From Phycomyces blakesleeanus NRRL 1555(-) (taxonomy: Eukaryota > Mucoromycota > Mucoromycetes > Mucorales > Phycomycetaceae), in assembly GCF_001638985.1 (NCBI RefSeq), contig NW_017265162.1, positions 1 through 64,000 on the forward strand: 64,000 nt of DNA. Direction: 5' to 3'. A program made the translations under genes and the position numbers. Of the stretch, positions 15,601 through 62,675 are shown one piece after another; position 1 is the stretch's first letter, and each line of letters starts with the position of its first letter. Below the pieces are notes generated by a model, which was not told the DNA's origin, searched no databases, and was given only the letters and a program-made list of their open reading frames with translations.

Positions 15601-18231
15601 CTATCGGAAGAGGAACCTCGCTACTGCATTTGCTGTAGACATCACGCTTGACTGGATAGCAGTTGTGATGTCTACAGCAAATGTTGCCGCCCTTGTCAAC
15701 TGGTTTTCCTCCATGTCTGCCGTAGGAGATACCTCTTGGGTGACAAATTCAGTTGGAGGAGACGGAAGACATGGAGGAGGAGACGGAAGACATGGAGGAG
15801 GAGACGGAAGAAAAGGAGGAGGAGGAGACGGAAGAAAAGGAGGAGGAGGAGACGGAAGAAAAGGAGGAGGAGGAGACGGAAGAGAAGGAGGAGGAGAAAG
15901 TGACGAGAAAGAAGGAGGAGGAGACAAGAAAGAACGAGGGGAAAGAGTCGAAAAAGGATGAGGAGAAAGAGATGAGAAGGAAGGTGACGAGAGAGGCAAG
16001 AAAGAAGGGGAAGAGAAAGAAGGGGACGAGAAAAAGGAAGGAGTGAGAGAAGAAGGCGAGCGAGAAGAGAGAGAAGGGGATGAGAGAGGCGAGGAAGAAG
16101 GAAGAGAAAGAGATGTAGGAGGAGGAAACCAGATGTAACGAGGAGGAGACGAGAAATATGGGGGAGGAGGATATGAGAGAGATGGAGGAGGAGACGAAAG
16201 AGAAGTAGGAGGAGGAAACCAGATGTATCGAGGAGGAGGAGACGAGACAACTGGAGGAGGAGACGAGACAACTGGAGGAGGAGACGAGACAACTGGAGGA
16301 GGAGACGAGACAACTGGAGGAGGAGACGAGACAACTGGAGGAGGAGGAAGAGACAAGAAAGCTGAAGGAGGAGGAGACGAGAGAGATGGAGGAGGAGGAG
16401 ACAAGAGAGATGGAAGAGGAGGAGACGGGAGAGAAGGAGTGGGAGGAGACGGGAGAGAAGTAGGAGGAGGAAACCAGATGTACCGAGGAGGAGGAGACGA
16501 GACAACTGGTGGAGGAAGAGATGAGAGAGAAGGTGGGGGAGGCGACGGGAGAGAAGGAGGATCAGTAGGGCCAGAATGGCCAGAAACCGAGGGAGAGATG
16601 GTGTTGGCTGAGACAACAGCAGTACCCTCGGAATTCTCCTTAGGCATACTGTTGTAGGCCTTCTTTTTCCCAATCTCCTCTCTTTTGTCAATTATTGACA
16701 GTATCATTTGTTTACTTCTCCATTGAAGTAGTTGCAAATGGAGGCTCGTCGAGAGTTTCCGCCCAACTTTGCTTCTCTTTGGCAGTGTTGCGTCTAGGGC
16801 TTCGATTTTTCTTTTGGTTCTTTCCGAACAGGACAAATCGTAGCCAAAATCGTCAGGACAAGGCCGCTTCTTTCCTGTGATCGCAGCTAAAGAAAATAAT
16901 ATAGATATTATTATTGATGCAAAAATTAAATACTACAAATAATAATAGTATTAATAATAAAAATATTCCTACCTTTTACAGAAACATAGTCTGATATTAC
17001 AATCGGGGTCCGCCCAAAAGCCTTGCCTCCCCGTTTGGTGATGGGGGAAGGAGCAAAACATTTATTAGGACCCCCTCGTCTACGAATAGATGGACGCTCT
17101 TTATCCAGCTCAGTTTCATCTTCCACAGATGACAGCTTTCTTTTCGTACCTCTTGTCTCGCAAGATACTAAATAAAAGCAGCAATGATAATTATGTAAAG
17201 TTATGATTAGAATTATTGGATCTACAAAAAGTTTTGTAAATTCAGTAATTACCCAAATGATCAGAGGATTCTTTGTCAGCTGCTTTAGAAGGACTACTGC
17301 CTTGATCAGCCGCATCCGACGTTTTGGGATGAGCAGAATGACCAGACGAACAAACAGGCACCTCTGAGACAACCCCACAATCAGAATCACTAACAAGTGA
17401 TCCGGAACAAACCTCAGGTCTTGAACAACTAGCAGCCTGTCCAAAAAGAGCATATTGCCCACCAACAATTCTTTTGTAAGAAGAGCAAGACTGGTCAGAA
17501 CCAGAAGAAAGAGTCTCAAAAAAGCCCACATTGTCAGAAGCATTGCTTGAATCTCTAGGAAATGAAAAGGCACGTTTACAGGCGGTGCCAACTCTGTCAT
17601 CACCAAAATCAGCGACTCTTTTTGAAGGAACAATGGAAGAAGCGCCTAAAAGAGTACTCAAAGGAGAACCAGAAGAGGCACCAGAAGAGGTATCAGAAAA
17701 GGTACCAGAAAAGGTACCAGAAGATGTACCAGACGAGGCACCAGAAGAGGTACCAGACGAGGCACCAGAAGAGATACCAGAAAGAGTACCACAAAGAGTA
17801 CCAGAAGAGATACCAGACGAGGTACCAGACGAGGTACCAGACGAGGTACCAGACGAGGCACCAGAAGAGGTACCACAAAGAGTACCAGAAGAGATACCAG
17901 AAGAGGTACCAGAAGAGATACCAGAAGAGATACCAGAAGAGGTACCAGAAGAGGTACCAGAAGAGGTACCAGAAGAGGTACCAGAAGGAGCACCGGAAGG
18001 AGTACCTACCACTAAGAGAATGTTTTCTTCACTCTCACAAGGAGTGCGGGAGCCTGAAGAAACATTATTTGTGGTAGTTTGGAAGGCAAATGCCTCAAAG
18101 TCACTCGCCAAAGGCGTGCGAAGATGAGGAAAACGGGAAAGGAGATAAGACCCATATGGGCGAGAGGAGGGTGAAGAAGAGTTGGTTGAGCTGTAGCTGT
18201 TGCTGTTGCTGGAGGCAGTAGATTGTGGCAT
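15601..18231 (-). CDS. Repetitive Ser/Gly-Thr and Pro-rich protein, three exons
   Basis: The phased exons 18231-17253, 17167-16973 and 16886-15601 give 819 codons. ATG 18231 (MPQSTASSNSNS) is preferred because a TATATATAAAG element lies about 65 bp upstream; an earlier ATG at 18312 would overlap that element. Exon 1 encodes a long array of four-residue units (SSGT, SSGI and variants). Exon 2 is basic (SIRRRGGPNK, ITKRGGK). Exon 3 begins with a charged segment (GKKRPCPDD, TKRKIEALD, LPKRSKVGRK) and continues with dozens of PSPPPP/SSPPP/SLP units. It ends with ADMEENQL...AVDITTAIQSS...NAVARFLFR. There is no signal peptide or known domain. Basic clusters could be nuclear signals; the function is unknown. 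The reverse-frame ORFs are periodicity artefacts. Confidence 0.7.
15750..16560. repeat. Purine-rich coding repeat (GGAGGAGAC units)
   Basis: GGAGGAGACGGAAGA and GGAGGAGACGAGACAACT units recur. The latter occurs five times in a row at about 16250-16340. They encode the proline-rich blocks on the minus strand. The strand asymmetry (almost only purines on +) is extreme and could favour triplex or R-loop formation; that is inference. Confidence 0.8.
17640..18010. repeat. 12-bp coding minisatellite
   Basis: Imperfect tandem units of GAGGTACCAGAA (plus strand) with variants such as GAGATACCAGAA and GAGGCACCAGAA encode the SSG-(T/I/A) array on the minus strand. About 27 units are present. Length variation between strains is likely by analogy with other coding minisatellites. 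Confidence 0.85.
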
Positions 18232-30893: not shown

Positions 30894-31013
30894 TATTAGC
30901 GTCTTTTGAAATCGATGCTTTCAAAGTTTAGAAAAAAAAATTACAAAAAAATGGAATAACCAAAAGTCGGGATAAATGTCAGGCCCGCGTCACAGAAGAC
31001 CTTCTCTTTCGCC
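30894..31013. promoter_or_regulatory. Bidirectional promoter between SMU1 and ORC2
   Basis: Only 120 bp separate the two start codons, which point away from each other. The spacer has an A-rich tract (AAAAAAAAATTACAAAAAA near 30930-30950) of the type that excludes nucleosomes, and no TATA box in either direction. Shared regulation of the two essential genes is inferred from distance alone. Confidence 0.6.
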
Positions 31014-32744
31014 ATGAAAACCATTATCCAAACCAACGAGGACATTCCTGTTCACATTCCATGCGTTGTCGATGCTGAATCAGCTAAAGCTGAAGAGCTT
31101 TTGGCCAGCCTTATTAAGCCCAGGAAAATTACACGACGTACCAATACGGCAGTAGATCTCGGTTTGACAGTTGAAACACCCATCAAAAGCAAAGGTCAGA
31201 AGAAAGAAGTGGATGTTGCCACTGAATTGTCACAGAATCAACAAGACCTCGTGCGATCCCAAAGTAATCTACAGCCGAACAGGCCAAGCCGAACAGAAAG
31301 CGCACTTGGTGGAGTAGAATGTAGTGACGATGATGAAGATTCTATGATGATTGATCAAGACAATACACAAAAGGATTCGAATGGCAAAGAAATTTATAGC
31401 TTTGGTTTAAAGAATAAGTCGACAAAATCTATGATGAAGAGAGCTGGTGCTGATATAGGACAAGGTACATTGTCCGGCTCGTTAGCTAAGAGAGCACAAT
31501 CCAATTCTACAAAAGCAAACGCTGAAAACCACGATAATCGCGTACGTATTCGGAAACAAATGGAATCTCTCAAAGACGATGCGAACAGCGATGAAGACAT
31601 AGATGATGCAGAAGAGGAAGAAGATAAGGACAATATGGATATAGAAGAGGAAGATGATGAAGATGATGAAGATTCGGGTGGAAGACTTCGAAGCAAACAG
31701 GACAATTCTGAAGCAGGCTATGATCGCTATTTCCAGGATCTTCAAACTTCAGCAAAAACATCTAACAACACTTTATCCAAACTTGCTGTTCTTAATCCGA
31801 AAGAATTCAACGACATTCTGGCTTCAGCACCAAAAAAGCATGATATTGAGATCAAAAGACTATTGAATGCCCACCGTTCTTATTTCTCACAGTGGGTCTT
31901 TGAGCTTCACTCTGGCTTCAACCTCATCTTCTACGGTTATGGGTCCAAGCGACGTCTATTAAACGACTTTGCCCAGTCTTCTCTATCAAATGGACCACTC
32001 ATTGTAATCAATGGCTTTTTCCCTTCAATTAATATCAAAGATATTTTGCTCAAAATCACTTCCGGTGCCCTAAATATCACTTGCTCGACAGGGCAAGTTC
32101 TGGAACATGCAGCTGTTATATGCGATTACTTTTCAGATGATGAGAGAGAGTTTGATCATCTCTACTTGGTAATTCACAACCTGGATGGTGCGAACCTGCG
32201 CAATGAACGTGCACAGACAGTCTTGTCTATGCTTGCAAATTCGCCAAACATTCACTTGATTGCTTCTGTTGACCATATCAATGCTGGCTTGCTGTGGGAT
32301 AATGTCAAGGCAAGTCGCTTCAACTGGATTTGGCACGATGGAACTACGTATGATGATTACCTGGTTGAAACAAGTTTTGAGAACTCGTTGCTAATGCGTT
32401 CGGGAGAAATGGGTGGTGTAAGGGGTGTCCAATATGTTTTGACTTCACTCACCAGCAATGGTCGTGGAGTGTTCCGAGTTCTGGCCGAACACCAGCTAGT
32501 AGAAATGGAGATGTCTTCTTCTGATGGTTCTGACAACTCAGCATTGGGGTTACCTTACAACAAATACTATCAACTGTGTCGAGAAGGTTTCTATGTGTCA
32601 AGTGATGCAAGCTTACGTTCACAATTGACCGAATTTAAGGATCACAAAATTATTCACACAAAAAGATTACCAGATGGTACAGAAGTATTTTATATACCTC
32701 TTGATAAGGCGACTCTTACCAGTATTGTAGAGAACATGGCATAG
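31014..32744 (+). CDS. ORC2: Origin recognition complex subunit 2
   Basis: Intronless, 576 residues. The N-terminal half is disordered and acidic (DDEDSMMIDQD near residue 105; a D/E-rich run at about residues 195-225). The C-terminal half from about residue 250 matches ORC2: LLNAHRSYFSQWVFELHSGF (split here), NLIFYGYGSKRRLLNDFA, PLIVINGFFPSINIKDIL, VIHNLDGANLRNERAQ, SVDHINAGLLWD and NWIWHDGTTYDDY. ORC2 has an AAA-like fold without ATPase activity and a winged helix at the C terminus (FYVSSDASLRSQLTEFKDHK region). It acts in the nucleus to mark replication origins. The length is normal for fungi. Confidence 0.96.
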   Translation: MKTIIQTNEDIPVHIPCVVDAESAKAEELLASLIKPRKITRRTNTAVDLGLTVETPIKSKGQKKEVDVATELSQNQQDLVRSQSNLQPNRPSRTESALGGVECSDDDEDSMMIDQDNTQKDSNGKEIYSFGLKNKSTKSMMKRAGADIGQGTLSGSLAKRAQSNSTKANAENHDNRVRIRKQMESLKDDANSDEDIDDAEEEEDKDNMDIEEEDDEDDEDSGGRLRSKQDNSEAGYDRYFQDLQTSAKTSNNTLSKLAVLNPKEFNDILASAPKKHDIEIKRLLNAHRSYFSQWVFELHSGFNLIFYGYGSKRRLLNDFAQSSLSNGPLIVINGFFPSINIKDILLKITSGALNITCSTGQVLEHAAVICDYFSDDEREFDHLYLVIHNLDGANLRNERAQTVLSMLANSPNIHLIASVDHINAGLLWDNVKASRFNWIWHDGTTYDDYLVETSFENSLLMRSGEMGGVRGVQYVLTSLTSNGRGVFRVLAEHQLVEMEMSSSDGSDNSALGLPYNKYYQLCREGFYVSSDASLRSQLTEFKDHKIIHTKRLPDGTEVFYIPLDKATLTSIVENMA

Positions 32745-47694: not shown

Positions 47695-50660
47695 TTATGC
47701 TCGCGACTTTCGTTTACTTTTCTTTGTGGTCTTCTTTGTGGTTTTTTTAAGCTGCTTTGCCATAATTTCGCCGTATGTTGGTCCAGGCTCAAATGTGATC
47801 TCATCTTCGTCTTCACTTGAATCACTTGAGTCTCTTGTCAAAAGGATTCTTTCAGGAGTAGCTGGGCGGTCAGAGTTATCTGTTGAGTTTTCATCGATCT
47901 CTTGTGGATCCTCTAGGCCATTCCTGATCTCTGTATCCTCCACCGCTTTAACTCCACTTTCGTATATCATTACGGAATTCTGTATATTTTCCCACACTCT
48001 TTCATCTAAAATTTGGTATTTAAAGCACACGTTCTTTAGAGCATGTATTTATCAGAATCATTCCCTCTAATTACCTATAGTATCAACACCGATGAAGTAT
48101 TTGGTTTGAAAGGATACGCAGGATTGATTTCCCTGTAATATTAACACCATTTTTATTTTTTAGTTTATTTTTGTCAAACACAATAGCTCACTTTTATACT
48201 TACATACGCCAGGTCTTCCGCCTTGATTAATTCAGATGGGTTATTTGAAATCTCAGCAAAAATAGCTTATTGAAACAAAATAAAACAAAAGAAAACAAAG
48301 ATATTAAGATAAAAGAAAAAGGAGGAGTTCATTCTACAATGTAATACTTCACTTACCTATATTGACACCTTCAAACTTTAGGTTAGGGTCAGCAGCATGA
48401 ATATTCCATAATATAGTATTCACCATCTTTTTCCGTTTATTTGCATTGAAGCCGTCGCATTTTGTTTGCTTGATACTGAATTCTGTATCTTTGTCGACAC
48501 GGCCGTATGTGATCTACATACACAATATTTGAGCAGGTTTAGACTAAAGGATCCTAAGCTATGTTATTAGTCCGGATCAAATACAGTATGCATTTACTTT
48601 TTTTTCTTTCAGCTTTTCTTGAATGGAATCCAAAACTTCATTATTGTAAGCAAATACAATAATACTGGGAGGGTCATTATTTGCTAACACATCGTCTATG
48701 TAAGATATTATTGGCTCGACTTTAGCTTTTCCACACTCAAGCTAAGCAAATAAATAAATGTATAGTATTGGTTATTTTATCAGATAAAAGAAAAAGAAGA
48801 GCACAGCCTGAGGGGAGAGGGTTTATATATATATATATATTCTTTACCATCTCTGGGTCAACAATGTTATCTTGATCTTCTGGGGCTTCATTTCCTTCTG
48901 CTTTTTTCATAGCCTTTTTGGTTTTTTTCAGCTGTATCCTGCTCTTATACGGTATTTCGGTATATATTATCTGTCTCGCTCGTTCAGGTAATTCATAATC
49001 AATAAACTCTCTTTCTCGTCTTATTAAAACAGTTTTAATCATCAAGTGTCTTAGTTCTGCTCCATTCGAAGTGCCTACATTGAAACATGTTCATTATATC
49101 AGTTCATTTATCAGTGAGCCTATCGTAAGATCTTTTACCAGAATAGTCCCAACCAAACACATGATGTGTAGGTTTACAGTATCGTTGGCTAAATCTTATG
49201 AAATCTGGAAATTTAACACTCTGAAGAGCATGAAGTTGCGTTTGAATATCCACAGGGCGGGCATCCTCAGGAGTATTTGATATCATTATGAGGTGTTTTG
49301 TTCGATGAAATACCCTTGTTAGTGCTCTTGGACGGTTGCTCTAAAGAAGTATTGTTATTCTTATTATTATAAGTATATTACTGTGATGTATTGCCTACTA
49401 TTATTATTTTTTGAAAACTTGCCATTCGATTTTTTAGCTGGCTACTCTCATCACATAAAATTATTTGGAAATCCATGTCTTCAATCTCTTTGGCATATCT
49501 TGCTGCAATATCGTAGTTCATGATATAAAACTTTACAGCATTAATTGAATCTTGGTTTGATCCTGATTCTGACTCTGACTCTGAATCCGAGACTTGGGGT
49601 ATATCCTTTTTAAATCTAGTGGGTAATTCTAGATTCGCGTTTCGCTTTTTAGGGATATGAAGACCAGCATCGGCTGGTTTGGATCTCTTGCGCAAATTTC
49701 CTTTGCCGAGAACATCAGATGATCGAAGAGTAACATGAACTTCTTCCTCTTTCAGCTCTAGCCATCTCAAAATTTCGTCCTTCCAAGTAAGGCAAAGTGA
49801 GGCTGGGCAAATAACAAGCGCGGGCCACTTATCCTCATAAGCCAAGGCCAATGCAAGACCCTGAACTGTCTTGCCTGACCCTCTGTCATCTCCAAAAAGA
49901 ACTCTGCCTTTCATCACCACACCCGTTCTTACGCCTTGTTTCTGATAATCTCTGAGTAGGTTCCAAAGCGAAGAATTTTTAACTCGGCTTACTCTTGTAT
50001 CAAATTCTCTGTCATTTTGATCTATCATACTCTTTTCACTCATTTTATCTTTCATATGTGCCACAATTCCGGGCAGAAGAGGTTGTACTTTAAGATTCAA
50101 ATTTGGTGTTTCGGTAGGCATGCGTTGGATAGCGTTCTCGTAGGATGTTACGGTAGCTGGGATGATCCAACGCTCGTTCTCGTCGTCCCATTCCCCATCT
50201 GGAATACTCCGGAGAACAGGTAATAGCGTATCATTGTGTGTTGTTTTGATACAAATCTGATCCTCTGACAGCAAGCTGAATTCGACTATTGTTTTCATCG
50301 GTGACTCCCTGAGCGAAGGTCCCTTTTCTCGCTGTACTTCCATATGCTGAAGAGCCCATTTGTTTGAGTGTATGTTTCTTGAGGCTGCAGCAATAGCATA
50401 GGCTTTTGCAGGATGTGTCGTATATGGACTGGCAGACGTATCCCACTTGAAGTAACTGCACATAGATCTCGAACACTGAAATAACATATAGATATTATTT
50501 AGTAATAATAATAATAAAGCAGTAAATAAAATATATATACTTGTATAAAAAGAGGGGGTTTATCTACCTTCCAAAACCAACGCCCTTGGTTAGGTCCTGG
50601 CTTAAGTGATTCGATGCTTAATGCTGGTACTCCACATGTGCATCTTGGTTGATTTGACAT
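47695..50660 (-). CDS. GRF zinc finger-HARP-SNF2 protein, SMARCAL1-like, motor motifs degenerate
   Basis: ATG 50660 opens MSNQPRCTCGVPALSIESLK, a GRF-type zinc finger (C-x-C...C-x4-C, completed by FWKCSRSMCSYFKWD over an intron). A HARP-like segment follows (KTIVEFSLLSEDQI...IPDGEWDDENERWIIP). The SNF2 half has LLRDYQKQGVRTGV, FGDDRGSGKTVQ (Walker A intact), VICPASLCLTWKDEI and CDESSQLKN where SMARCAL1 has DESH. Next are ISNTPEDARP (normally LSGTP) and FGWDYSG. The second half is shorter and divergent: FAEISNNPSELIKAEDLAY|GNQSC replaces the AED-x2-HRIGQ of active relatives. The C terminus is acidic then Lys-rich (TKKTTKKSKRKSRA), likely a nuclear signal. SMARCAL1 anneals strands at stalled forks; this copy may be a scaffold or a fast-evolving ATPase. 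Confidence 0.8.
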
Positions 50661-58840: not shown

Positions 58841-61800
58841 ATGTGGAAACCTTCAGCATCGGTTCAGCCACAAAGATTAAATCGAGCAAACAATAGTACA
58901 AGAAACACACCAGTTGCAACAAGGGATTACAGGCCACTTGCCTTAGGTTCAAAAAATACTCAGCGATGCATACACATCACACGATTGCATCCTAAAACAA
59001 CTGAGCAAACTATCCAAGTTGTGTTTTCACAATTTGGACATATTGAAAAAATTAAGCTTGGGAAGGGAACTCCTGTGTTAGGTGCTGAAGCTTTATTAAC
59101 CTATAGGTAAATCCCAATATAGACATTCGTTAACCTACTGTAACATTACAACCTAAACACGAATGTTCTGTTATGCTTAATGATTTAGTCAGCCACCAGA
59201 GTCAAACGCGCTTCTACGGACACAGATTACAGTAGATGGTTTTCCCGTTAATATAGCTTTTCGCGATCTAGATGAATATGTTCAGAATACTCCACCAGAA
59301 GAAGAACACCAACGCTGCAAAATACCCGTTAGTTGTTTTTCTATGGGGTTTTTGCGGTCACCAAAGACCTTTATGACTGAATGGAGCACCATAGACAATC
59401 CTGATTTTGTAATTGACTATGACCACAACCAATGTGAGATTCACTTTTTTAGTGTTGGTAACCAATATAAGCTGGAGTTTGGTTTCAAAGATTTAGCCAA
59501 CGACTTCAACTTTGAATACACGAACAACAGTGCCTTCTTCACTATTCCTCTCAAAACCCCACCTAAATTCTGGAAGAAATCGGGGGATTTTTCTGTCAAA
59601 GATACAAATGAAGAATCTGGGTGGGTGCGAGTTGTTGAGATCCCTATGTCAGCTCCACGACCTGGCCCTCCTATAAGAACCCCAATAACACCCATGGTAC
59701 CCGATGGATACATGAAGTTAAATACGTGGGTTGTCTATAGAGTAGAAATCAACCCACCACCAGACTACTACCGTGATTTCCAAGACATCCTTCAAACTGC
59801 AGTCAGCTACCGCCTCATTCAATTAGAGTACATATCTACGTTTCATGTGTTTGATGCTTCAGACTTTCCTATCCCACTGAATCACAATGATCGCGCCAAA
59901 CGCTTACCATTTGATATGCTATATCTACTTGAAAGCAGTCTTCTGTCACGCCAAATGGATGAGCACAGTCTAGATAAAGAGTTCTATGATACTCTTACCA
60001 ATCTCGATCCAGCGGTTGCATCAGGTATTCTGACCTTACTTGTTCAGGAAAGAAAACGAGTATGGAATCCTGCCACTGCCTTTCAAGATATGTGGAAAAA
60101 CGAAGATATCAGGATCTTTCACCAACAGAAGATTCCCAGTCATTGTGGCATGGTTCGCAAGGTTCTTGTCGCACCTACAGGACTCTACCTAGAACCACCA
60201 ATTGTAGAAACCACCAACCGTGTTATTCGACATTTCTCAGAACATGCTGATCGCTTTCTTCGCGTTAATTTTGTGGATGAAGATTTTGGTCCTGTTGGGA
60301 CCTTATCTTCAGGTATAAACAATGAGGCATTGTATTCAAGAATATTCAAGACCTTGATAAATGGCATAAAAATTGGTCCGCGACGCTTTGACTTTCTTGC
60401 TTATTCTAAATCCCAATTACTTGAGCATGGATGTTGGTTCTTCGCACCCACGCAGAATCTCACAACCACCATGATTCGAGACTGGATGGGAGACTTCTCT
60501 GATGAAAAAGTCATTGCAAGCTATGGAAACATGATGGGACAGGTAATAAGAACGTAAAAGTTAATACTTGACACGTATCTAATGCTATGTAGTGTTTATC
60601 CTCGACGTATCCCATCACACCTATGGAAGGTAAAGAAGTGGACTACATAGATGATCTTATACGAGGCAACAATCTATTTTCGGATGGTGTTGGAAAAGTA
60701 TCACCGAAACTAGCCAGGGAAATAAGTAGTAAACTTGATTTAAAACGGATACCTAGTGCTTTCGAATTTAGACTCGGTGGTGCCAAAGGTGTCTTGTGTC
60801 TGTCCAACTATTTAAACGGCAGGAAAATCAATCTGCGCCCTAGCCAAATCAAGTTTGAATCTAGGTCCAATATGTTGGAGATCACACGAGCATCAAAGTT
60901 CCTCCCGGCCTACTTGAACCAGCAAACTATCACATTATTATCATCTCTTCGAATAGATGACAGCGTATTTATGACAATGTTCGATAAGATGGTGAACCAA
61001 CTCAGCAGGATGCTAGAAACACCTTTAGAGGCTATCAATGCCTTGACAACGAGTATAGATGATCATAGTACCGTCTTGTCTATGGCTCGTATGGTTGAAT
61101 CTGGTTTCTTGCTGACAAAGGATCCTTACCTTGTAAACATGATACATCTATTCCGCGCCAGCATTCTTAAAAATCTCAAGAAAAACGCAAAGATCATAGT
61201 TCCCGAAGGTGGCTTTTTAATGGGTGTACTTGATGAGACTAACACGCTGGGTGAAAATGAAGTATTTATCCAAATATCCAATCCCTTGTCTGGTACTGCC
61301 AGGCGCATCATTAAAGGAGAGACTCTTATATATCGGGATCCATGCTTCAATGTAAACCAAATGCGTGTGGTGACAGCAGTAGATAGTCCACAATTGCATC
61401 ACATCTACAATGTAATCGTGTTCTCTTCCAAGGGCTATAGGAGTATACCTAGCATATGTTCAGGAGGAAGTCTGGGCGGCGATAACTATATGTAAGTATT
61501 TTTCTAGTGTTCCTTGAGTTTTTAATTATAACTATTCTTTAGGGCTATATGGGATCTGAAACTCATGCCAAAAGGCAACTATCCCCCTATAAAACTTGCC
61601 GGAAAAGCGCCTATTGAGGTGGAAAAAATCAATGTACTTCATGTTGAAAAATTCTTCGTCTCATTTGTCAGCAATGATAATCTTGACCAGATTATTGAAG
61701 CACATACAGCTATTGCAGATCAATCAAAGCTTGGTGCATTGGATGGACATTGCTCGCGTCTTGCGGAACTTCACTCACAAGCTGCTGGTAAGATGTGTTT

Positions 61801-62675
61801 TACCGAGCTTGCTCTCAATCTAACGTCGTATACTAGAATTTGCGAATACTGGAAGATCGGCAGAGTTTCCTTTAGACCTTCGTGTTAAGAAGTTCCCAGA
61901 TTTTATGCAAAAGAAAGACAAGGAATCGTACGCCTCCACGAAAATCTTAGGCAATATCTTTAGAGCAATTGATCCATCGTATTACAAACAGTATCGGTCT
62001 TTCTTGACAGACAATGCAACTTACGACAATCGCCTTTGGATGCCTGGAATGGAACCATATATTGCAGAAGCCAGAGAGCTAAAGATAGTCTATACAAATG
62101 ATGTGATGGCTTTGATGAGTCAGTATGGTGTTCAGACTGAATCTGAACTTATGTCTGGGTTTGTCATAAAATGGCTCAAAAAAGGTGATGTTAAAAGTAA
62201 AGCCAGACTTGGAAAACAGGTTATGGCTGCTGTTAAGAGTATGTGTAAACTGTGGAAAAGGCGATTTGAGCTAGAGTTTACCGAAAACGCTGCGGATTTT
62301 GAGACACGCCAGATCAAAGAGAATGCAATGAATACCAAAGCAGCAGCATGGTATTATGTTACGTATCATCCACAAGAACGGTCTCAACCATCTCCACATG
62401 GTGTTTTTTTCAGTTTTCCGTGGGTTGTTAAAGATAAACTCTGTTCTATTGCCACAAGTTATCAAGAAGGTGCTGGCCAAGGTGAAATCAAGCCATTAGA
62501 CGAGTCTCTTGTCAAGAACTACAAGAAAAACAGTACGATAAATGTTAGCCTTGAAATGTTTTACTCGGCTAGTGAATCGGAAGAAGAGGACGGCTCAGAC
62601 GAAGAAAGCGAGGATGAAGGGTGGGGTCAAGACGTTCCAACAGTGAATATTAGGATTAGCGATTTACGTATTTAA
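58841..62675 (+). CDS. RNA-dependent RNA polymerase (RNAi type) with altered catalytic motif
   Basis: The phased exons 58841-59106, 59189-60542, 60593-61491, 61543-61787 and 61837-62675 give 1,200 residues. ATG 58841 starts MWKPSASVQPQ. Residues about 45-120 form an RRM-like fold (CIHITRLHPKTTEQTIQVVF, LGAEALLTYR). The RdRP core follows: PTGLYLEPP, NRVIRHF, DRFLRVNFVDEDFG, GRRFDFLAYS-like PRRFDFLAYSKSQL, FSDGVGKVSPKLA, PSAFEFRLGGAKGV, VFIQIS, VTAVDSPQLHH. It ends CSGGSLGGDNYMAIWD, then HSQAAEFANTG. Cellular RdRPs carry D-x-D-G-D at this point; here the first two Asp are Ser and Gly. The tail is very acidic (SESEEEDGSDEESEDEG). RdRPs make double-stranded RNA for Dicer in fungal silencing. The substitution predicts loss of polymerisation, so a structural or regulatory role is inferred. 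Confidence 0.93.

What the first reader, a model, noticed from the sequence alone, without database searches (positions are those of the whole stretch)
61462..61491. RdRP whose catalytic D-x-D-G-D reads S-L-G-G-D
The codons read TGT TCA GGA GGA AGT CTG GGC GGC GAT, giving CSGGSLGGD. In cellular RdRPs the DLDGD aspartates coordinate the catalytic metals; two of three are missing, yet the 1,200-residue frame is intact with five clean exons. This predicts a pseudo-polymerase kept for another role, for example a dominant regulator, scaffold or partner of an active RdRP in the silencing pathways known to use several RdRPs in Mucorales.
Basis: partly seen in the sequence, partly recalled or inferred. 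Interest (0 to 1): 0.88.

Follow-up and report, generated by a model that had tools for sequence, protein, structure and literature searches.

The report
Degenerate RNA polymerase in a fungus
A mould gene for an RNA-copying enzyme has lost most of the residues that do the copying, yet its reading frame is intact, which suggests the fungus keeps a dead polymerase as a non-catalytic part of its gene-silencing machinery.

Summary
Confirmed. The gene (58841-62675, +, five GT-AG exons, 1200 aa) encodes a full-length RdRP-family protein (PF05183, 535.8 bits). Its catalytic loop reads C-S-G-G-S-L-G-G-D at 61457-61483, so two of the three metal-binding Asp are gone. The loss goes beyond the motif: of 81 RdRP-domain positions invariant across two plant RDR2s and two other RdRPs of this genome, 16 are changed in the window protein only, against 1 in its closest paralogue only. 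Among the 16 are the trigger-loop Lys, the bridge-helix Gly (as Gly-to-Asp, the change that is null in plant RDR6), the HPGD-loop Asp and slab-helix Lys/Arg. The genome has three other RdRPs, all with intact D-x-D-G-D. The frame has no stop; neutral simulation predicted about 13. Sequencing error, hidden exon and passive decay are therefore unlikely. The layout resembles Mucor RdRP3, needed for the Dicer-independent NCRIP pathway, so I read it as a non-catalytic RdRP3-like subunit or decoy. Not settled: orthology to Mucor RdRP3, conservation of the dead site in other Mucorales, and function. The protein database was switched off and no fungal relatives were held.

The parts
58841..62675 (+). 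RdRP-family gene, 1200 aa; exons 58841-59106, 59189-60542, 60593-61491, 61543-61787, 61837-62675 (stop included)
   Evidence: Spliced translation, four GT-AG introns, no internal stop; PF05183 535.8 bits over residues 416-966, profile 1-582 of 582
58841..59106 (+). Exon 1, carrying an RRM-like N-terminus
   Evidence: PF00076 RRM_1 residues 46-74, 16.9 bits, below its cut-off of 20.7: weak
60519..60533 (+). Residues 533-537 SYGNM; K533S, A535G, R537M against the invariant K-x-A-x-R of the slab helix (RDR2 K513, A515, R517)
   Evidence: Alignment of six RdRPs; RDR2 511-521 described as a helix that may match the Rpb2 link helix (PMC8713982 section 14)
61337..61360 (+). Residues 789-796 DPCFNVNQ where RDR2 and the C3 paralogue have NPC(L/F)HPGD: N789D, D796Q
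61457..61483 (+). Catalytic loop CSGGSLGGD: D833S and D835G, D837 kept
61492..61542 (+). 51-base intron two codons behind the motif, same position as in the C3 paralogue
61685..61687 (+). G888D, bridge-helix glycine (RDR2 G886, RDR6 G921)
   Evidence: Alignment; RDR6 G921D is null (PMC8713982 passage)
61784..61847 (+). Residues 921-925 AEFAN where other RdRPs have VD..K: V921A, D922E, K925N (RDR2 V919, D920, trigger-loop K923); spans the intron 61788-61836
   Evidence: K923 described in PMC8713982 (passage)

Best explanation
The gene encodes a pseudo-polymerase: a complete RdRP-fold protein, sister to an intact RdRP2-like enzyme in the same genome, whose catalytic centre has been lost (metal-A site, NTP-contacting trigger-loop Lys, bridge-helix hinge, HPGD loop, slab-helix Lys/Arg) while the frame and most of the fold-defining residues were kept. 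It most likely works without synthesising RNA. Using its RRM-like N-terminus and its largely conserved first double-psi barrel, it would bind RNA and/or another RdRP and act as a non-catalytic subunit or specificity factor in a silencing branch, most likely the role held by RdRP3 in the Mucor NCRIP pathway. Shown here: the catalytic losses, the intact frame, three intact paralogues. Inferred: no polymerase activity, continued function, RdRP3 identity, RNA binding, partner binding.
For: Two of three triad Asp absent. 81 RdRP-domain positions invariant in AtRDR2, ZmRDR2, C6 and C13: 16 changed only in the window protein, 1 only in C3, 7 in both. Single changes at these sites are known to kill the enzyme: QDE-1 of M. 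thermophila with the first Asp replaced (PMC4861493 passage), RDR2 DGD to AAA (PMC8713982 section 14), RDR6 G921D, the same change as G888D here. Constraint: 0 stops in 1200 codons against a simulated mean of 13.3, minimum 7, over 100 neutral runs to the same amino-acid change; 51.0% identity to C3 over residues 401-1120, 43.5% over all aligned positions; 57 of the 81 invariant positions kept in both, including D571, K605, R622, K627, N649 and D837. RdRP3 likeness: 1200 against 1210 aa, RdRP domain 416-966 against 407-944, closer to the RdRP2-like than to the RdRP1-like paralogues (PMC5384783 passages). Mucor RdRP3 is dispensable for transgene silencing but needed for NCRIP, which fits a non-catalytic part.
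Against: No orthologue was seen, so the losses could be confined to this lineage. Mucor RdRP3 has five introns and 30% identity to RdRP2 against four introns and 43.5% here. A dsRBD search of this genome found nothing and no R3B2-like RNase III was recognised, so the NCRIP nuclease was not shown to be present. The protein evolves faster than its paralogue (60 against 25 lineage-specific changes at 458 sites, p = 1.9e-4), which also fits relaxed constraint. Clustering of changed sites in the catalytic elements is not significant if all changes count (9 of 20 inside, 14 of 61 outside, p = 0.085); it becomes p = 0.008 (9 of 20, 7 of 54) only after dropping the 7 positions that C3 also changed. 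The RRM is below Pfam's cut-off. No expression data.
Confidence: 0.6

Rival explanations
1. Decoy: the dead RdRP occupies templates or partners of its active sister (C3, RdRP2-like) and restrains it, rather than being a positive subunit.
For: Window and C3 are sister paralogues with shared introns. In Mucor, loss of rdrp3 raises RdRP2-dependent epimutation (57 of 64 isolates; PMC5384783 passages).
Against: Mucor rdrp3 is also required positively: P1 and P2 mRNAs accumulate in its absence just as in rdrp1 and rdrp2 mutants. That paper explains the epimutation effect by competition between pathways. Identity with Mucor RdRP3 is itself inferred.
Confidence: 0.17
2. A gene on its way out: function was lost and the protein is decaying under relaxed constraint.
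For: Faster evolution than C3 (60 against 25), and some of the 16 changes lie outside the known catalytic elements (I576V, Q598E, G660R, G762N).
Against: No stop and four intact GT-AG introns, where neutral change to the same extent gave 7 or more stops in 100 of 100 runs. pN 0.307 against pS 0.788 in the RdRP domain (551 codons; dS saturated, and this pairwise figure covers both branches).
Confidence: 0.12
3. The protein is still a nucleotidyl transferase with a rebuilt active site (D837 plus other acidic residues, or a different reaction such as template-independent addition).
For: D837, FSDG, G-x-K-G and the R-x-S-x-x-K-F segment are kept.
Against: The NTP-contacting Lys, the bridge-helix Gly and the HPGD Asp are lost as well; single Asp substitutions abolish activity in relatives. 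No replacement D-x-D was seen.
Confidence: 0.06
4. Artefact of sequencing, assembly or gene model.
For: No reads or transcripts were available to check.
Against: Sixteen deep-invariant positions in three exons would all have to be errors; the frame is clean; two introns sit exactly where C3 has them; no alternative exon.
Confidence: 0.02

Closest known systems
Mucor circinelloides / lusitanicus RdRP3 (NCRIP pathway; PMC5384783, passages)
   Same: Length (1210 against 1200 aa), position of the RdRP domain, multi-intron gene of about 3.9 kb, closer to RdRP2 than to RdRP1, in a genome with an RNA helicase beside an HMG mating-type gene
   Different: Four introns here, five there; 43.5% identity to the RdRP2-like paralogue here, 30% there.
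Arabidopsis RDR2 / maize RDR2 (PDB 7roz, 7w82)
   Same: Colinear from residue about 304-322 to 1128 (405 and 375 bits), with slab, DPBB1, DPBB2, bridge helix and trigger-loop segments alignable
   Different: RDR2 has DLDGD, HPGD, G886 and K923; the window protein has SLGGD, NVNQ, D888 and N925
C3 paralogue in the same genome (RdRP2-like)
   Same: 51.0% identity over residues 401-1120; two introns at the same positions
   Different: C3 keeps every residue of the catalytic set; only 1 of 81 invariant positions is changed in C3 alone
Amphioxus RdRP candidates and fungal RdRPs without the full triad (PMC6396948, PMC4290597, passages)
   Same: RdRP-family sequences reported without an intact active site: 3 of 6 in Branchiostoma lanceolatum, about 13 of 84 fungal
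   Different: In the passages seen these are counts, partly of incomplete gene models; no function is assigned to a dead member

Membership tests
Cellular RNA-dependent RNA polymerase (catalytic enzyme, PF05183) | PF05183 domain over its whole length | tested here: met
   535.8 bits, profile 1-582/582
Cellular RNA-dependent RNA polymerase (catalytic enzyme, PF05183) | D-x-D-G-D metal-binding triad | tested here: not met
   S833-L-G835-G-D837
Cellular RNA-dependent RNA polymerase (catalytic enzyme, PF05183) | Trigger-loop Lys and bridge-helix Gly (RDR2 K923, G886) | tested here: not met
   N925 and D888 (roles from PMC8713982)
Cellular RNA-dependent RNA polymerase (catalytic enzyme, PF05183) | Polymerase activity | not testable with these tools
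   Needs purified protein
Mucor RdRP3 of the NCRIP pathway | Size, domain position, nearer to RdRP2 than RdRP1 | tested here: met
   against PMC5384783
Mucor RdRP3 of the NCRIP pathway | Sequence orthology to Mucor RdRP3 (reciprocal best match, tree) | not testable with these tools
   Protein database off; no fungal genomes held
Mucor RdRP3 of the NCRIP pathway | Genome encodes the NCRIP nuclease R3B2 (atypical RNase III plus two dsRBDs) | tested here: inconclusive
   No dsRBD match; RNase III models find a two-domain Dicer-like frame (C15), one at C41 and a partial at C6. PMC4395119 says R3B2 paralogues are too divergent to be annotated as RNase III
Mucor RdRP3 of the NCRIP pathway | Genome encodes the RnhA helicase beside the sex locus | tested here: met
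   TPT, HMG box and AAA_11/AAA_12 helicase within about 10 kb of contig C1; the name RnhA is by position and domain only
Pseudoenzyme | Catalytic residues lost while an intact paralogue keeps them | tested here: met
   16 against 1 of 81
Pseudoenzyme | Frame kept under constraint | tested here: met
   0 stops against a simulated minimum of 7 in 100 runs; indirect, as no orthologue was available
Pseudoenzyme | Loss conserved among orthologues | not testable with these tools

The most novel reading that the evidence does not exclude
RdRP3 of Mucorales as a class is a pseudo-polymerase. The Dicer-independent NCRIP pathway would then use a dead RdRP as an RNA-binding or dimerising subunit that steers an active RdRP (RdRP1 or RdRP2) towards mRNA degradation, so the published model in which RdRP3 itself copies target mRNAs would need changing.
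Probability: 0.33. Interest if true: 0.82.

Novelty: new variant of a known kind. Interest (0 to 1): 0.64.

Why it matters
Dead relatives of kinases and nucleases are well-known regulators, but I found no paper describing a function for a catalytically dead cellular RdRP (listings, in an open-access library only). If the dead site holds across Mucorales, it would explain why RdRP3 is dispensable for transgene silencing yet essential for NCRIP (PMC5384783), and would turn 'what does RdRP3 do?' into one sequence alignment and one polymerase assay. It would also warn that counting RdRP genes overstates RNA-copying capacity in fungi.

Tried and rejected
Sequencing error, hidden exon, alternative splicing: rejected. 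RNA editing: restoring Asp would need two changes at AGT or G-to-A at GGC; A-to-I editing reads the opposite way (codon distances; editing chemistry recalled). A second, intact copy in the genome: none; the protein search returned this gene and its three paralogues only.

Searches for orthologues led nowhere: exon 3 against viral contigs gave no match; exon 2 against prokaryotic genome contigs gave 3 pattern matches, none confirmed. R3B2: no dsRBD match; the partial RNase III at C6:563879-564016, read, lacks the usual RNase III signature and looks to me like a mitochondrial ribosomal protein (label recalled, not tested); the C41 match likewise (recalled). dN/dS with C3 is uninformative because dS is saturated. 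Structure prediction was not run: I judged that spliced products fall outside the tool's stated inputs.

Alignment caveats: the first attempt used wrong splice sites for C3 and C13 and was discarded; one search replaces it. The C13 model used drops about seven residues behind its motif (acceptor choice), treated as a gap. C3's first donor is ambiguous (three stop-free choices). Only five comparison sequences were used, two of them close pairs. Leave-one-out controls (window excluded) gave C3 7 of 78, AtRDR2 7 of 78, ZmRDR2 6 of 77, C6 11 of 82, C13 4 of 75 changed, none of these at the triad or at the aligned positions of K513, R517, N784, D791, D810, G886, D920 or K923 of RDR2. The neutral simulation assumes half of substitutions are transitions and has no indels.

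Full report
What is there. The window holds a five-exon gene at 58841-62675 (+) that encodes 1200 aa without an internal stop, with GT-AG at all four introns. PF05183 (RdRP) matches over its whole length at 535.8 bits, and phmmer against the PDB matches Arabidopsis and maize RDR2 over residues about 304-322 to 1128 (405 and 375 bits). The catalytic loop is C-S-G-G-S-L-G-G-D at 61457-61483: the first two Asp of D-L-D-G-D are Ser and Gly, the third is kept.

The genome around it. The window's assembly (53.5 Mb, 60 contigs) has four RdRP genes by PF05183 (8 exon matches): this one, one on C3 with DLDGD, and one each on C6 and C13 with DYDGD. It has two Argonaute frames and a two-domain RNase III, Dicer-like frame. 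A triose-phosphate transporter, an HMG-box gene and an RNA helicase lie together on C1, the arrangement described for the Mucorales sex locus (PMC5384783 passages; search listing).

The catalytic centre as a whole is gone. I aligned the window protein with C3, C6, C13 and the PDB-derived parts of AtRDR2 and ZmRDR2. In the RdRP domain 81 positions are invariant among AtRDR2, ZmRDR2, C6 and C13. The window protein alone differs at 16, C3 alone at 1, both at 7, neither at 57. The 16 are K533S, A535G, R537M, I576V, Q598E, G660R, G762N, N789D, D796Q, D813N, D833S, D835G, G888D, V921A, D922E and K925N. [quoted passage not shown] structural roles from PMC8713982, passages and section 14).

Some of these changes are known to be lethal to function. 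Replacing the first Asp in M. thermophila QDE-1 gives an inactive enzyme (PMC4861493 passage); RDR2 with DGD replaced by AAA loses activity; QDE-1 D1011A is inactive (PMC2950127 passage), though that Asp is the one kept here. RDR6 G921D, at the glycine equal to RDR2 G886, is null, and the window protein carries exactly Gly-to-Asp there. RDR6 G825E and D826N probably concern the HPGD loop too, but I inferred that from residue offsets without the RDR6 sequence.

Controls. Leave-one-out changes in the other five (window excluded) were 7 of 78, 7 of 78, 6 of 77, 11 of 82 and 4 of 75, so 16 of 73 in the window protein (22%) is higher than 5-13%, and none of the control changes hits the catalytic residues named above. 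Clustering of the changed positions in pre-named catalytic elements (RDR2 511-521, 828-836, 880-896, 906-939) is 9 of 20 inside against 14 of 61 outside, p = 0.085. Leaving out the seven positions that C3 also changed it is 9 of 20 against 7 of 54, p = 0.008. I treat this as suggestive only.

It is not simply decaying. Neutral substitution of this coding sequence until 22% of residues changed gave 13.3 stops on average and never fewer than 7 in 100 runs; the gene has none. Two introns sit exactly where C3 has them, and a third in the corresponding N-terminal stretch. Identity to C3 is 51.0% over residues 401-1120 and 43.5% over all 1168 aligned positions. Against this, the window lineage changed more than C3 (60 against 25 at 458 sites where AtRDR2 and ZmRDR2 agree, p = 1.9e-4), so constraint is looser. 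pN 0.307 and pS 0.788 (RdRP domain) cannot be split by branch and dS is saturated.

What is kept. FSDG (569-572), G-x-K-G (603-606), R622/S624/K627/F628, P645, N649, the G-G before the triad, and D837. This leaves the first double-psi barrel largely intact, which makes RNA binding plausible; that is inference. The RRM at the N-terminus scores below Pfam's cut-off.

Which RdRP it is. Mucor RdRP3 is 1210 aa with the RdRP domain at 407-944, five introns in a 3947-bp coding region, 30% identical to RdRP2 and 17% to RdRP1 (PMC5384783 passages). Ours is 1200 aa, domain 416-966, four introns, 3835 bp, 43.5% identical to the RdRP2-like C3 and about 20-21% to C6 and C13. I think it is the RdRP3 orthologue (about two chances in three), but no sequence of Mucor RdRP3 could be compared. 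In Mucor, rdrp3 deletion leaves transgene silencing unchanged, raises epimutation and lets NCRIP target mRNAs accumulate. The authors propose that RdRP3 could synthesise complementary strands. A dead RdRP3 would contradict that part and fit the dispensability in transgene silencing.

How it most likely works. I favour a non-catalytic subunit: it binds RNA or an active RdRP and directs it into a silencing branch. QDE-1 is a homodimer in which one subunit is proposed to be inactive at a time (PMC8713982 passage), so a permanently inactive partner is mechanically reasonable. A decoy that restrains its active sister is the main rival. Neither was tested.

Novelty. RdRP-family sequences without the full triad have been counted before: about 13 of 84 fungal sequences (PMC4290597) and 3 of 6 amphioxus candidates (PMC6396948 passages). 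What is added here is a full-length, clean gene with catalytic-centre-wide loss beside an intact sister, plus a plausible identity as RdRP3. My searches of an open-access library and the passages of the RdRP3 papers showed no remark on RdRP3's catalytic motif; subscription papers and supplements were not seen.

Noticed in passing
G000:C1:3980894-3990921 (L047): TPT transporter, HMG-box gene and RNA helicase side by side: a Mucorales-type mating locus, useful for naming the organism.
   Followed up: yes
PMC5384783, PMC4395119, PMC7377519: The identifier 80729 is given for rdrp3 in one paper and for R3B2 in another, while a third gives rdrp3 as 159162; anyone fetching the orthologue should check.
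   Followed up: no
G000:C6 130500-138500 and C13 463000-471000 (L010, L011): Two DYDGD RdRPs, 47.6% identical over all aligned positions, where Mucor is reported with a single RdRP1.
   Followed up: no
G000:C6:563879-564016 (L023): RNase III-like frame with a degenerate signature (RLLLLGRRTIEF); may be a mitochondrial ribosomal protein or another pseudoenzyme.
   Followed up: partly
window 15601-16932 (-): Three overlapping long open frames on one strand over a Pro/Ser-rich repetitive stretch; low-complexity coding or chance.
   Followed up: no
window 30960-32741 (+), 49381-50559 (-), 63082 onwards (+): Neighbouring genes: ORC2 and an SNF2-family helicase, and a frame that looks like a PIF1-type helicase beside the RdRP (label recalled, not tested).
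   Followed up: partly
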